A stretch of 64,000 nt of DNA from Xanthostigma xanthostigma (lineage: Eukaryota > Arthropoda > Insecta > Raphidioptera > Raphidiidae): NCBI GenBank assembly GCA_963575645.1, contig OY754476.1, positions 1,860,001-1,924,000 of the forward strand, read 5' to 3'. A model generated the notes under the pieces. It did not search any database, was not told where the DNA came from, and saw only the letters and a list, made by a program, of their open reading frames with translations. Shown here one piece after another: positions 61,601 through 63,383 of the stretch. The position numbers and the translations under genes were made by a program. Numbering within the stretch: position 1 is the first letter of the stretch; each line of letters begins with the position of its first letter.

Positions 61601-63383
61601 TTAAATTTTTGTCCCTACGTTTTGTGTATGCATAAATGAAGTTTTTCTGAAAACCGAACATCGCGGCGGTACGGAAGTAGAATAAATACGGTGATACAAA
61701 ATATAATAAATAATATTTTGTACTAGCGTCAGTATTAATAAAAAAAATAACTATGATTACTGTCACAGCTACGGTATAGCAACTCTAAAACTAAACTAAT
61801 GGTATAGAAAACCAGAAATAATAATAATATGAACATTTGAGCAGTCAGCTGTATCTTGTACAGAATATTACATGACGTAAAAATATCTATTTTGTACCTA
61901 ATGTGTTATTTATTATATATAAATAAGTATTTTATGTACCTATATATCAGAATAATTAATATTCTATATATATAAATTAGCTACCTAAACCTATTGAATA
62001 CCTATATAATTACTTAGTTTATCTCACTGTGATATCGTTCAAGTTTGAAATACCTCTTTGGTAATAACTTCAATGGCTTCATTTACAAGTATGATCTCAG
62101 TGAAGTTCTGTTAAAGTAAAACAAAAAGAGATGTATATGTGTTAAGACAGAACGGGAACAGACTTACGCCGTTTTGGTTTTGTTCTTCATTACTCACAGC
62201 ATTTTCTCGACGATCAAACACCGGCATAGAAACAGACGTCATCAATCTATAATATCCTCTTCTGCCGCTCTCGTCGTCTATCTACAATTTAAAATCAATT
62301 TGTTATCAAATCTTAATACAAATATTAAGAGCACTGTGGTTGAAACAAAAATAAAAAACAGTTGTGTGGTTTTAAGAAACCACGACGCAAGTGAAACTTT
62401 TATTGGATTGTAGACACTTATCCATCACGATTAATTATAAACAACAATATTCACATGAATACACGAATAAAAACATGTAAACACTGTACAGCACTTGCCC
62501 GCATGACAGACTGACTATGTGTTATACATACTACACGGTCAGCTGATGCTAATCATGGGCGCCGCCATATTGGCCTTGGCTGCTCTACCGAGCGCCTACT
62601 CCGAACGCCTTTCACTTTACCCCTACTCCGCGGCCGCCTGTAATTCGACATGCAACAGACGGCCAGAAAAATTCGGGGCGATAGAATAAAAGTTTCACTT
62701 TAAAAATAAAGAAAAGTTATTTCTTACCACAACAGTTTTATTGGCGGATGTACATTTCGGGAGCTATGCTCTCATCTTCAGCAAACTGAAAATGAGAGCA
62801 CAGATCCCGAAATGTACATCCGCTAATAAAACTGTTGTGGTAAGAAGTAACTTTTCTTTATTGTTTATTTATCAAATCTTAAAATTGAATGAAAATTTTC
62901 AAATATCAAAAATTACGGATATTTTGGCTTGTAAACTTGTAAAAACAAAATATTTTGTTTGGTATTTATTTATTGCAACGAACTGTCTTTTCTATATTGC
63001 TGATACTTAAAAGAAAAGCTAGTAAACCCCAGAAATAATGTTAATTGAAATCGAATACATTTATTTTTCAGTAAAAAGAACGAAACGGTGAACGATTATA
63101 AAAATCAATAATTAAACTACTGAACTTACGTCTACGGATTTAATGTCGTCGTCGGTTAAATTTTTGTTCCTATTAAATTTTCTGACTTTTTCTTTCTGTT
63201 CTTCGCGCGTTTTCTTATCCCACATTACATCCGTCATTCTTGGGTCCATAATATCTGCGTAAACTGAAGTCCACGATATTGGATGTTCGGTTCTAGATAG
63301 CACAAGTGGTCTAGCCATGACTGGAATATATTGCAGTACTTGTTCTCTTACTTCAGCTAATGTACTTAAATGGACGTAGTAGC
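52575..63383 (-). CDS. Voltage-gated calcium channel alpha2-delta subunit, C-terminal 808 residues (5' end outside window)
   Basis: Auxiliary alpha2-delta subunit of voltage-gated calcium channels, an extracellular membrane-anchored protein that promotes channel surface delivery. Eighteen exons are resolved: 63383-63130, 62281-62198, 62107-62054, 59958-59878, 58587-58513, 58438-58334, 58269-58198, 57450-57251, 57143-56995, 56733-56692, 56062-55969, 54490-54380, 54231-54119, 54046-53907, 53710-53459, 53384-53107, 53022-52797, 52673-52575. All phases agree, giving 2427 nt after the first split codon. Order seen: end of the VWA domain ([15 protein letters not shown]), Cache-type signature ([13 protein letters not shown] and [20 protein letters not shown]), the alpha2 C-terminal region ([21 protein letters not shown]), [20 protein letters not shown], and a hydrophobic tail. 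The MIDAS part of the VWA domain is upstream of the window. I cannot assign a subtype (stj, CG4587 or CG42817-like). Confidence 0.93.
52797..53022 (-). CDS. alpha2-delta exon ([20 protein letters not shown])
   Basis: About residues 701-776. It contains the conserved SRPFVV-x-x-IP-x-x-N-x-ILLVID motif and ends [20 protein letters not shown] plus INSHIN, as in delta regions of the family. Boundaries TTTTTAG and GTAAGT. Confidence 0.94.
53107..53384 (-). CDS. alpha2-delta exon (variable segment before delta region)
   Basis: About residues 609-700. It starts [20 protein letters not shown] and ends NNSVCTS with the next exon. It has a moderately hydrophobic stretch followed by a lysine/glutamate-rich part. 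Phase and length agree with neighbours. Boundaries TTTTAG and GTACGT. Similarity to the family is modest here. Confidence 0.85.
53459..53710 (-). CDS. alpha2-delta exon ([24 protein letters not shown])
   Basis: 84 codons, residues 525-608. It opens CGKNCNESC (disulfide-rich) and contains [36 protein letters not shown] and [13 protein letters not shown]. This is the conserved second sensor-like domain. Boundaries TTTTAG and GTAAAT, phase 0. Confidence 0.93.
53907..54046 (-). CDS. alpha2-delta exon ([26 protein letters not shown])
   Basis: About residues 478-524. The exon begins after TTGTAG with [19 protein letters not shown] and continues [20 protein letters not shown]. The methionines just upstream in the same frame are intronic. 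Donor GTATGT, phase 0. Confidence 0.92.
54119..54231 (-). CDS. alpha2-delta exon ([16 protein letters not shown])
   Basis: About residues 440-477. [20 protein letters not shown] then YVFAVPFDA, matching the family's W-Y-K-R-A block. Boundaries TCTTAG and GTATGA. Confidence 0.93.
54380..54490 (-). CDS. alpha2-delta exon ([13 protein letters not shown])
   Basis: About residues 403-439. [20 protein letters not shown] is the well-conserved S/G-G-L-T-R-W motif of alpha2-delta proteins. Boundaries TTTACAG and GTAAGA. Confidence 0.93.
55509..55760. mobile_element. Penelope-like terminal palindrome in alpha2-delta intron
   Basis: Inverted arms carry CCGGGCTTGTATTCCGTGG, TCCATTGGTATTTCTACCTG and GACGAAACGTCAGG, the unit seen at 14594-14782, and end in ACACCGGCCGTGAAAGCC. 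Each arm keeps GAAACGTC preceded by a TCTACCGCAGTTGTAGA hairpin; the CTGANGA box is not recognisable. Confidence 0.65.
55969..56062 (-). CDS. alpha2-delta exon ([20 protein letters not shown])
   Basis: About residues 372-402. [16 protein letters not shown] is strongly family-like (VWA-to-alpha2 linker). Boundaries TTAG and GTAGTA. It ends NDTQRDEK plus AG. Confidence 0.88.
56692..56733 (-). CDS. alpha2-delta microexon (42 nt)
   Basis: Reads [13 protein letters not shown] between CTACAG and GTGAGT. It begins with two bases and ends with one, matching both neighbours. A possible N-glycosylation site (NST) is present. Being 14 codons long and a multiple of three, it could be skipped in some transcripts. 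Confidence 0.75.
56995..57143 (-). CDS. alpha2-delta exon ([20 protein letters not shown])
   Basis: About residues 308-357. It continues as [19 protein letters not shown] and ends SPEM plus one base. The donor is probably GTAGGT after ATGT. An alternative cut would break the frame with the next exon, so this choice is phase-supported. Confidence 0.85.
57251..57450 (-). CDS. alpha2-delta exon ([12 protein letters not shown])
   Basis: Residues 242 to about 307. It contains [20 protein letters not shown] and [13 protein letters not shown], an extracellular beta-rich segment conserved in the family. It ends in phase 2 (TG), completed as tryptophan by the next exon. Boundaries TTTTTAG and GTAATT. 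Confidence 0.9.
57633..57894. repeat. Foldback element with GAAGTCGGTTCAA arms
   Basis: Arms of about 100 bp share AAAATATTTTTAACAAAA, TTGAACCGACTTC, GCACTAAAAAGTAAAAAATA and GGAGTCGGTGTC in inverted orientation. Confidence 0.75.
58198..58269 (-). CDS. alpha2-delta exon ([20 protein letters not shown])
   Basis: 24 codons, residues 218-241. It corresponds to the family's L/F-RE-A/M-V helix segment. Boundaries TTTTAG and GTGAGT, phase 0. Confidence 0.88.
58334..58438 (-). CDS. alpha2-delta exon ([14 protein letters not shown])
   Basis: 35 codons, residues 183-217. [20 protein letters not shown] then [15 protein letters not shown], matching the family pattern of an acidic segment after the Cache core. 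Boundaries ATTTTAG and GTAAGT. Confidence 0.92.
58513..58587 (-). CDS. alpha2-delta exon (Cache core, LTHPDLRP)
   Basis: 25 codons, residues 158-182. [20 protein letters not shown] then DLRPV, the most conserved Cache segment in the family. Boundaries TTCCAG and GTAAGT. Confidence 0.93.
58850..59103. mobile_element. PIF/Harbinger-like MITE
   Basis: 254 bp flanked by TTA. Ends AGGCTCCTATACACAAGTGG and the complement of TGCCTCTACTACACACGTGG, both followed inward by CCAGCACCGCCACT. Confidence 0.7.
59431..59854. mobile_element. pogo/Tigger-like MITE
   Basis: Flanked by TA. Ends TAGTGGACCCCCGGTAATC and GGATTACTGGGGGTCCACTG. The interior repeats GTCGGATTA. This CAGTGGACCCCC terminus is typical of pogo-related elements. 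Confidence 0.75.
59878..59958 (-). CDS. alpha2-delta exon ([13 protein letters not shown])
   Basis: 27 codons, residues 131-157. [20 protein letters not shown] is a near-universal alpha2-delta signature in the Cache-type domain. Boundaries TGCAG and GTACGT, phase 0. Confidence 0.92.
59959..62053. other. Large alpha2-delta intron
   Basis: AT-rich, with a dispersed repeat at 61084-61463. No exon recognised; the frames at 61099-61766 belong to the repeat or have no domain. Confidence 0.6.
61084..61463. repeat. Dispersed repeat, inverted partner of 2101-2482
   Basis: Matches 2101-2482 in reverse orientation from GATTCATTGTCTATC-like to TATTCTATACC-like boundaries. Confidence 0.7.
62054..62107 (-). 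CDS. alpha2-delta microexon (18 codons)
   Basis: Reads [18 protein letters not shown] between TTAACAG and GTATTT, phase 0. It has a potential N-glycosylation site (NFT). Placement is supported by phase and by position between two recognised exons. It has weaker family similarity than its neighbours and could be a cassette exon. Confidence 0.6.
62198..62281 (-). CDS. alpha2-delta exon ([14 protein letters not shown])
   Basis: 28 codons, residues 85-112. [20 protein letters not shown] matches the family's RLMTTVSTPVFD-type motif, which opens the Cache-like region. Boundaries are TTGTAG and GTGAGT, both phase 0. Confidence 0.88.
62359..62700 (-). mobile_element. GC-rich TIR element, copy 3
   Basis: Same ends as copies 1 and 2. 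The 66-codon frame is broken by a TGG-to-TGA change. It abuts the Penelope-like hairpin at 62707. Confidence 0.75.
62707..62862. mobile_element. Penelope-like terminal palindrome
   Basis: Inverted arms AAGAAAAGTTATTTCTTACC, ACAACAGTTTTATTGGCGG, ATGTACATTTCGGGA and complements. Each arm contains the hammerhead-like layout; the left arm (read on the minus strand) keeps all core boxes. Confidence 0.7.
62733..62788 (-). ncRNA. Candidate hammerhead ribozyme motif
   Basis: Minus strand in order: CAGTTTG, CTGAAGA, stem II TGAGAGC-ATA-GCTCCC, GAA, the self-complementary ATGTACAT, C, CG, then AAACTG. This fits the hammerhead core (CUGANGA, GAAA, UH before the cleavage site), with a predicted cut between 62747 and 62746. 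Stem I would have GC and GU closing pairs, an internal loop and CAGUUU/AAACUG. The palindromic stem III suggests a dimeric form, as described for Penelope-like elements. Activity is untested. Confidence 0.6.
63130..63383 (-). CDS. alpha2-delta exon: C-terminal end of VWA domain
   Basis: Partial-protein residues 1-84. It contains [40 protein letters not shown] and [20 protein letters not shown], the stretch that closes the VWA domain and enters the Cache region in this family. Acceptor is TTTCAG, donor GTAAGT. The exon starts with the last two bases of a codon begun upstream of the window. Confidence 0.92.

What the first reader, a model, noticed from the sequence alone, without database searches (positions are those of the whole stretch)
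62733..62788. Well-formed hammerhead-ribozyme-like motif in a Penelope-like palindrome within an alpha2-delta intron
Seen: CTGAAGA, a 6-bp stem II with an ATA loop, GAAA, a palindromic ATGTACAT stem III, then C at the expected cleavage position, all in order on the minus strand, which is also the transcribed strand of the host gene. Known: Penelope-like retroelements carry hammerhead motifs, often with very short self-complementary stem III that works as dimers. Inferred: this copy may still cleave, and could do so in the pre-mRNA intron.
Basis: partly seen in the sequence, partly recalled or inferred. Interest (0 to 1): 0.72.

Follow-up and report, generated by a model that had tools for sequence, protein, structure and literature searches.

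The report
Decayed Penelope retroelement hairpin with ribozyme
An intron of a probable insect calcium-channel gene holds an old, folded-back remnant of a Penelope-type jumping element whose self-cutting RNA motif is recognisable but probably dead in this copy, and its many sister copies may record how these elements insert.

Summary
The motif is real but less well formed than stated. On the minus strand it reads CTGAAGA, one extra U, GAGAGC/ATA/GCTCCC (5 of 6 pairs, one A·C mismatch), GAAA, TGTACA, U, C (cut after 62747). It lies in an 80-nt-arm palindrome (62702-62865), part of an element at 62317-62868 between 14-bp target duplications. The element belongs to a repeat family. The same arm lies about 250 nt after the stop codon of GIY-YIG Penelope-like elements (PLEs) in this genome (18 of 30 fetched GIY-YIG loci), so it is a head-to-head pair of PLE pseudo-LTRs. 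The PLE version has a perfect stem II; six other PLE types here carry a covarying hammerhead with the same extra core nucleotide. The PLE hammerhead reading is thus supported for the family. In this copy stem I is lost, covariance scores are at noise, and the plain hairpin folds about 42 kcal/mol better than with the hammerhead core imposed, so cleavage in the pre-mRNA is unlikely. Junctions differ between most sister copies and arm ends pile up about 48 nt upstream of the cut site. This suggests palindromes made anew by two-sided priming on mostly uncut RNA; use of cut RNA is not excluded.

The parts
62303..62316 (.). target site duplication, left copy (TTATCAAATCTTAA)
   Evidence: the repeat finder D15; exact 14-nt match to the other flank; 27 of 38 tail-bearing copies have a duplication of at least 8 nt against a mean of 1.7 with shuffled partners
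62317..62355 (-). PLE 'tail' (3' end of the element; in a full PLE copy the matching stretch follows the pseudo-LTR at the start of the ORF region)
   Evidence: same sequence on one end only of the 38 of 40 hairpin copies in which a tail was recognised and in 8 of 18 PLE loci (position in L082)
62356..62701 (.). nested younger insertion of 346 bp with 16-bp inner terminal inverted repeats (62389-62404 / 62685-62700), separating tail from palindrome; flanked by AAAAATAAA (62347-62355 and 62702-62710)
   Evidence: 40 places scored of 493 candidates; the 39 others are at 99% identity; repeats
62702..62781 (-). tail-side pseudo-LTR arm, carrying the hammerhead-like motif
   Evidence: its family is about 90% identical to the PLE pseudo-LTR downstream of the GIY-YIG ORF (query L019)
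62747..62781 (-). hammerhead-like core: CTGAAGA 62781-62775, extra U 62774, stem II 62773-62768 / 62764-62759 (A·C mismatch 62772/62760), GAA 62758-62756, A15.1 62755, palindromic TGTACA 62754-62749, U16.1 62748, C17 62747 (cut after it)
   Evidence: read; PLE version with perfect stem II
62782..62785 (.). 4-nt loop = head-to-head junction; the 5' strand of hammerhead stem I is missing here
62786..62865 (+). inverted pseudo-LTR arm; its own copy of the core reads CTGAAAA (G8 changed), so it is not expected to act as a hammerhead on the plus strand
62869..62882 (.). target site duplication, right copy
62282..63129 (-). host intron (848 nt, GT..AG); the element with its duplications takes 580 nt of it and ends 21 nt from the 3' splice site
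   Evidence: exon frames join across it; alpha2-delta assignment weak

Best explanation
The feature is an old insertion of two pseudo-LTRs of a Penelope-like retroelement joined head to head, one with the usual tail, flanked by a 14-bp target duplication and later split by a 346-bp transposon. Most likely mechanism (inferred): the PLE protein cuts both target strands with a stagger, starts reverse transcription on each strand at one of two neighbouring internal sites of the RNA (with or without tail), both cDNAs run to near the RNA 5' end and are joined there, leaving a palindrome whose centre is the ribozyme region. The PLE RNA carries a minimal type I hammerhead with one extra core nucleotide and a palindromic stem III that would act as a dimer. 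The copy in the window is a decayed descendant: core letters remain, stem I is gone, stem II is mismatched and the core is buried in a near-perfect hairpin, so it most probably does not cleave. Shown here: PLE kinship, tail, duplications, covariation between PLE types, decay, variable junctions. Inferred: two-sided priming, template 5' end, lack of cleavage, dimer action.
For: Repeat family: 40 places scored of 246 candidates, each of the 40 matching on both strands. PLE link: 18 of 30 fetched GIY-YIG loci (some overlapping, e.g. L077/L078) carry the arm about 250 nt after the ORF stop on the same strand, 8 of the 18 with tail; L082 holds a 3,142-bp perfect head-to-head palindrome of this PLE. 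Duplications: 27 of 38 at 8 nt or more against 1.7; tail on one end only in 38 of 38. Hammerhead: nine sequences of six other PLE types have stem I and II pairs that covary, 97.5% of cells paired against 66% shuffled, covariation 0.852 against 0.190. PLE copies have the core intact in 16 of 18 loci, with stem II GAGAGC/GCTCTC in the copies read. Junctions: 36 of 39 (ungapped measure, an upper bound) and 39 of 50 (gapped) pairs of arm ends distinct. By spacing between exact anchors: 125 places at 68-98, 38 at 37-67, 1 at 0-30; arm ends peak at 46-50 nt upstream of the cut (42 of 100 arms; 18 of 66). Published PLE biochemistry fits: both strands cut and extended, two adjacent RT starts = tail, ribozyme mutants insert normally (PMC11167929, main text section read); inverted pseudo-LTR plus tail described in PMC3846280 (passages). 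Burial: best fold of 200 nt -116.9 against -74.7 kcal/mol with four stem II pairs forced and the core kept unpaired.
Against: The model from other PLE types (R1) gives no match at this place at E <= 10, while two chance matches elsewhere in the window reach 13.8 and 12.2 bits; the PLE parent gets only 16.3 bits (E 0.21), so the hammerhead reading of this PLE lineage rests on sequence order, stem I/II pairing and position rather than on a significant score. The three-stem fold of the PLE version is -3.8 against an MFE of -14.0 kcal/mol. In one search the number of pairs with changes on both sides (6 against 4.6) was reached in 35 of 500 shuffles, and the nine sequences are partly related. Arms of one copy share some variants (21 shared against 146 single differences; 0 of 5000 permutations as close), which also fits inherited palindromic subfamilies. 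Some arms do end at or near the cut site: 7 of 66 within 3 nt among 33 of 38 short-spaced places, and the anchors under-count exact cut-site ends. Two-sided priming with free choice of start site would predict some copies with two tails or none; I saw a tail on exactly one end in 38 of 40 and recognised none in 2, which is unexplained, and PMC11167929 saw no difference in start site between strands.
Confidence: 0.8

Rival explanations
1. An active intronic hammerhead ribozyme that cuts the host pre-mRNA.
For: All conserved core letters of one arm are present on the transcribed strand; dimer action is proposed in print for minimal PLE hammerheads (review PMC7761336, passages).
Against: Stem I 5' strand replaced by the palindrome junction, 2 of 5 inner pairs; A·C mismatch in stem II; complementary arm transcribed first; no score above noise; the anole PLE ribozyme shows no cleavage without PLE protein (PMC11167929).
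Confidence: 0.05
2. A foldback DNA transposon (MITE) moved by a DNA transposase, with a hammerhead-like motif by chance.
For: Near-perfect palindrome, many copies.
Against: One-sided tail in 38 of 38, duplications of variable length, differing junctions, arm like that of PLE pseudo-LTRs.
Confidence: 0.04
3. One master palindrome that multiplies as a non-autonomous PLE-mobilised unit (a hairpin satellite of the PLE), rather than palindromes formed at each insertion.
For: Arm-symmetric variants (T55A in both arms of 6 copies, A50T of 4); some junctions recur (one pair of arm ends in 3 of 39; 50 copies give 39 pairs); tail always on one end.
Against: Most junctions distinct, and in the first set the single-copy loop sequence lay in either orientation to the tail (sense 10, antisense 10, neither 19, unparsed 1 of 40).
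Confidence: 0.17
4. A microRNA precursor (Rfam lists miRNA families here).
For: mir-5014 57.4 bits, mir-1468 40.5 bits, mir-633 35 bits.
Against: All far below gathering scores (101, 95, 90); a long near-perfect hairpin can score so; the element is a repeat.
Confidence: 0.02

Closest known systems
Penelope-like element pseudo-LTRs with head-to-head inverted copy and tail (Adineta vaga Penelope families, PMC3846280; passages seen)
   Same: Inverted pseudo-LTR joined to a direct one, optional ~31-bp tail on one of the inverted pseudo-LTRs, target duplications of 8-10 bp in the cases shown, palindromes at the inverted junction.
   Different: Here 164 places of one genome have two exact arm anchors facing each other within 98 nt (1 + 38 + 125; spacings 31-36 and above 98 not searched), too close to hold an ORF between them; the arms are about 80 nt and junctions can be tabulated.
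Anolis PLE 'PAc' with protein-assisted hammerhead and internal RT initiation (PMC11167929; main text section read)
   Same: Hammerhead at the pseudo-LTR/ORF boundary, tail = stretch between two RT start sites, both target strands cut and extended, ribozyme not needed for insertion in vitro.
   Different: Different animal; there the two strands showed no difference in RT start site, here 38 of 38 insertions with a recognised tail have it on exactly one end.
Minimal type I hammerheads of PLEs (Cervera and De la Pena 2014; Lunse et al. 2017; neither held, known from reviews PMC6155905, PMC7761336, PMC7229834, passages seen)
   Same: Type I order, short or missing stem III, tandem occurrence, dimer action proposed.
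   Different: All seven PLE hammerhead types examined here have one extra nucleotide between A9 and stem II; I found no statement on this in the passages I read.
Rfam Hammerhead_1 (RF00163) and Hammerhead_HH9 (RF02275)
   Same: Core letters.
   Different: Neither model matches the window motif or the two PLE loci and one hairpin tested (L072, L077, L019) at E <= 10, although they match canonical hammerheads elsewhere in the same genome (L049, L050).

Membership tests
Type I hammerhead ribozyme (this copy) | core CUGANGA ... GAA A15.1 ... U16.1 H17 in order | tested here: met
   (with one extra U after A9)
Type I hammerhead ribozyme (this copy) | stem II paired | tested here: inconclusive
   5 of 6 pairs, A·C mismatch; the hairpin family majority is the same, PLE parent perfect
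Type I hammerhead ribozyme (this copy) | stem I, open end, paired | tested here: not met
   2 of 5 inner pairs, outer stem missing
Type I hammerhead ribozyme (this copy) | covariance score above noise | tested here: not met
   no Rfam hammerhead at E <= 10; no R1 match at the place at E <= 10
Type I hammerhead ribozyme (this copy) | self-cleavage | not testable with these tools
   no bench
PLE-type minimal hammerhead (PLE families of this genome) | stems I and II covary between families | tested here: met
   26 cells with both sides changed, 0 of 500 shuffles as high; 6 pairs with such a change, 35 of 500 shuffles as high; stem I was not used to pick the sequences, stem II was
PLE-type minimal hammerhead (PLE families of this genome) | position downstream of the GIY-YIG region, same strand | tested here: met
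   18 of 18 loci L063-L080 about 250 nt after the ORF stop; in the other types about 0.5-1.7 kb downstream of the GIY-YIG match (coordinates); that these lie in pseudo-LTRs was not shown
Penelope-like element | RT plus GIY-YIG ORF next to this pseudo-LTR | tested here: met
   PF01541 hits in ORFs ending ...IPFSALFDLL, one of 804 aa; the RT domain itself was not scanned with Pfam
Penelope-like element | inverted pseudo-LTR, tail, target duplications | tested here: met
Foldback MITE | symmetric ends and constant-length duplication | tested here: not met
   one-sided tail, duplications of variable length

The most novel reading that the evidence does not exclude
The solo hairpins are a natural readout of PLE insertion. 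Each comes from two cDNAs primed on the two target strands, one from each of the two internal start sites, and copied mostly from RNA whose 5' end lies at the first base of hammerhead stem I and which had not been cut by the ribozyme. If so, the ribozyme acts after or apart from reverse transcription, and the RNA start sits at the edge of the ribozyme fold. In addition, the hammerhead with one extra core nucleotide would be a general PLE form in this lineage.
Probability: 0.38. Interest if true: 0.65.

Novelty: new member of a known kind. Interest (0 to 1): 0.42.

Why it matters
The role of hammerheads in PLEs is called unknown in a review seen in passages (PMC7761336). At least 164 tiny head-to-head arm pairs of one PLE lineage, most of those examined with their own junction, give a genomic record of where cDNAs stop. 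That lets one ask whether ribozyme-cut or uncut RNA is the template, and whether both target strands are primed, without a bench.

Tried and rejected
Chance palindrome: rejected, repeat family. Phage collection: only short weak matches, E-values 2-7 among those listed. Viral contigs with three patterns: none. miRNA: below gathering scores. Rfam RF00163 over the genome: 2 matches, both at L049/L050; only 73 of 81,843 candidates were scored, so absence at PLE pseudo-LTRs means little. Claim 'no template was cut at the ribozyme': dropped. My anchors CAGTTTTATTAGCGG / CCGCTAATAAAACTG include C17, so exact cut-site ends were under-counted; 0 of 100 arms near the cut is largely forced by the spacing chosen (68-98); and 7 of 66 arms in the short class do end within 3 nt of it. 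The unbiased anchors could not be run. N{99,129} was asked twice without an answer; N{31,36} was not asked. Copy counts of the exact motif with CTCTC and CTCCC could not be run. One search timed out and was replaced. In one search the measure was ungapped, 1 of 40 copies (L045) was not parsed, and 4 of the 39 (L042, L043, L044, L048) could not be oriented by the tail.

Papers: PMC11167929 main text section read (passages of other parts); PMC3846280, PMC6155905, PMC7761336, PMC7229834 passages only; others seen in listings only. Cervera 2014, Lunse 2017, Arkhipova 2017 and one further PLE paper were not held. Searches for hammerhead and Penelope with Lepidoptera or butterfly gave no paper; with Bombyx 3 papers, listing only apart from PMC11167929. 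Hammerhead position numbers, the start-motif remark and the view that the genome is lepidopteran are from recall.
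Full report
Observation. The stated letters are present on the minus strand in the stated order and the predicted cut (62747/62746) is right. Three points change the picture. There is an extra U between A9 and stem II. Stem II has 5 of 6 pairs (A·C mismatch). Stem I is practically missing (2 of 5 inner pairs). The motif occupies one arm of a palindrome with 80-nt arms, 93% complementary, and a 4-nt loop. A loose hammerhead descriptor hits only here in the window, against 0.17 per 64 kb in 60 simulated windows, so order alone is more than chance. 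Rfam has no hammerhead match even at E <= 10.

What it is. The window's own genome is held (623 Mb, 28 contigs). The palindrome is a repeat: 40 places scored of 246 candidates, all 40 palindromic. I fetched the 40 with flanks and aligned them. 38 of 40 show a recognisable tail, on one end only, and 27 of 38 show a target duplication of at least 8 nt, against 1.7 with shuffled partners. In the window the tail is at 62317-62355, split from the palindrome by a younger 346-bp insertion (99% identity in the 39 other scored places of 493 candidates). The duplication TTATCAAATCTTAA lies at 62303-62316 and 62869-62882.

Kinship. A GIY-YIG search found 37 matches, of which 30 loci were fetched. In 18 of 30 (L063-L080, some overlapping) the ORF ends ...IPFSALFDLL and the arm lies about 250 nt downstream on the same strand, about 90% identical, 8 of the 18 with a match through the tail; the other 12 showed only short chance matches or none. 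One locus (L082) has an 804-aa open frame between two pseudo-LTRs and a perfect head-to-head palindrome. The element is therefore a head-to-head pseudo-LTR pair of a Penelope-like element, a structure in print for other animals (PMC3846280).

The ribozyme in the family. In these PLE copies the motif reads AGTTTA gtg TATTG CTGAAGA U GAGAGC AUA GCUCUC GAA AUGUACAU C | CACTA a TAAACT. Stem II is perfect, and stem I has a 5-position inner part with one mismatch and a perfect 6-bp outer part. The core is intact in 16 of 18 loci and, in at least one arm, in 24 of 40 hairpin copies. Of the other 24 GIY-YIG loci scanned (L051-L062 and L084-L095, several covering the same place twice), 13 carry a similar motif; the other 11 do not (L085 had one long-looped match that I set aside). 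I aligned 9 of the 13; L051, L062 and L092 were left out as repeats and L089 as lacking a clean stem III. They represent six types. Stem I and II pairs covary (97.5% of cells paired against 66% shuffled; covariation 0.852 against 0.190; pairs with changes on both sides 6 against 4.6, reached in 35 of 500 shuffles). Stem II was part of the selection and stem I was not; the nine are partly related. All six types, and the lineage of the window, have exactly one extra nucleotide after A9. A model built from these nine gives the PLE lineage 16.3 bits (E 0.21), matches 3 of 40 hairpins at the motif (L011 on the opposite arm, L033, L035; E 0.1-0.8, while three flank matches score higher) and does not match the window copy at E <= 10, where chance matches reach 13.8 bits. 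So descent is supported by position and pairing, but this lineage is divergent and the window copy does not pass a score test.

Can this copy cut? The other arm has lost G8 (CTGAAAA). The arm complementary to the core is transcribed first, and the best fold of 200 nt is -116.9 kcal/mol against -74.7 with four stem II pairs forced and the core kept unpaired. Even in a 64-nt piece the hammerhead-like fold is +1.9 against an MFE of -15.0; the PLE version is -3.8 against -14.0. The anole PLE ribozyme needs PLE protein to cut (PMC11167929). I conclude that cleavage of the pre-mRNA is unlikely; no experiment was possible. The host gene reads in frame across the intron; alpha2-delta is likely but weakly tested.

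How the palindromes arise. The centre of the hairpins differs between most copies: 36 of 39 pairs of arm ends distinct by an ungapped measure that overstates differences and 39 of 50 by a gapped one. In the first set the tail arm is longer in 18, the other in 19, 2 equal (4 of these 39 not oriented by a tail). Samples chosen by outer anchors gave 125 places at spacing 68-98 (control 0), 38 at 37-67 and 1 at 0-30. All 50 listed of the 125 were fetched (3 were already in the first set). Their arm ends peak 46-50 nt upstream of the cut site (42 of 100; 22 at exactly 48; 6 beyond 50, at most 53); that none of the 100 lies within 3 nt of the cut is largely forced by that spacing. In the 37-67 class, 33 of 38 places had letters shown on both strands: 18 of 66 arm ends at 46-50 and 7 of 66 within 3 nt of the cut. 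My anchors under-count exact cut-site ends, so use of cut RNA by a minority is not excluded. The upstream peak coincides with the first base of stem I and looks like an RNA 5' end (inference). With published two-strand cutting and extension and two adjacent RT start sites (PMC11167929), the simplest account is two-sided target-primed reverse transcription on mostly uncut RNA, with the two cDNA ends joined in the middle. Against a simple version: a tail on exactly one end in 38 of 38 is not explained by free choice of start site. A single master palindrome is disfavoured by the junctions, though arm-symmetric variants exist (39 of 40 copies measured: 21 shared against 146 single-arm differences; mean within-copy distance 0.062 against 0.077 between copies, reached in 0 of 5000 permutations; sister arm nearest or tied in only 12 of 78).

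Novelty. A PLE with a minimal hammerhead and inverted pseudo-LTRs is known. The window copy is a decayed member. What may be new is the size of the junction record and the constant extra core nucleotide; I saw no statement on the latter in what I could read, and two key papers were not held.

Noticed in passing
L049 1210-1256 (-) and 1489-1562 (+); L050 likewise (C1:5417285, C1:46574205): Canonical hammerheads (Hammerhead_1 35.7 bits, above its gathering score of 34; HH9 36 bits, below its 52) on opposite strands about 230 bp apart with direct and inverted repeats: looks like a retrozyme-like element with ribozymes on both strands.
   Followed up: partly
window 62356-62701: 346-bp insertion nested in the PLE remnant; 40 places scored of 493 candidates, the 39 others at 99% identity, so probably a recently active transposon family.
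   Followed up: partly
window 63436-63841: Another foldback element with 47-bp inverted repeats rich in CGCGCG, on the other side of the exon 63130-63383.
   Followed up: no
L017 1-48: A further PLE-type hammerhead (33.6 bits, E 1.8e-6 with R1) happens to lie beside one hairpin copy.
   Followed up: no
PLE hammerheads of this genome (alignment A1, and L072, L019, window in A2): Every type aligned has exactly one extra nucleotide (U or A) between A9 and stem II.
   Followed up: partly
L082 3968-7109: A 3,142-bp perfect palindrome made of two head-to-head PLE parts with identical arms.
   Followed up: no
L009-L048: Tail on exactly one end in 38 of 38 copies with a recognised tail: unexplained if each strand chooses its start site freely.
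   Followed up: partly
window 62282-62316: The element's tail end lies 35 nt, and its duplication 21 nt, from the 3' splice site of the host intron.
   Followed up: no
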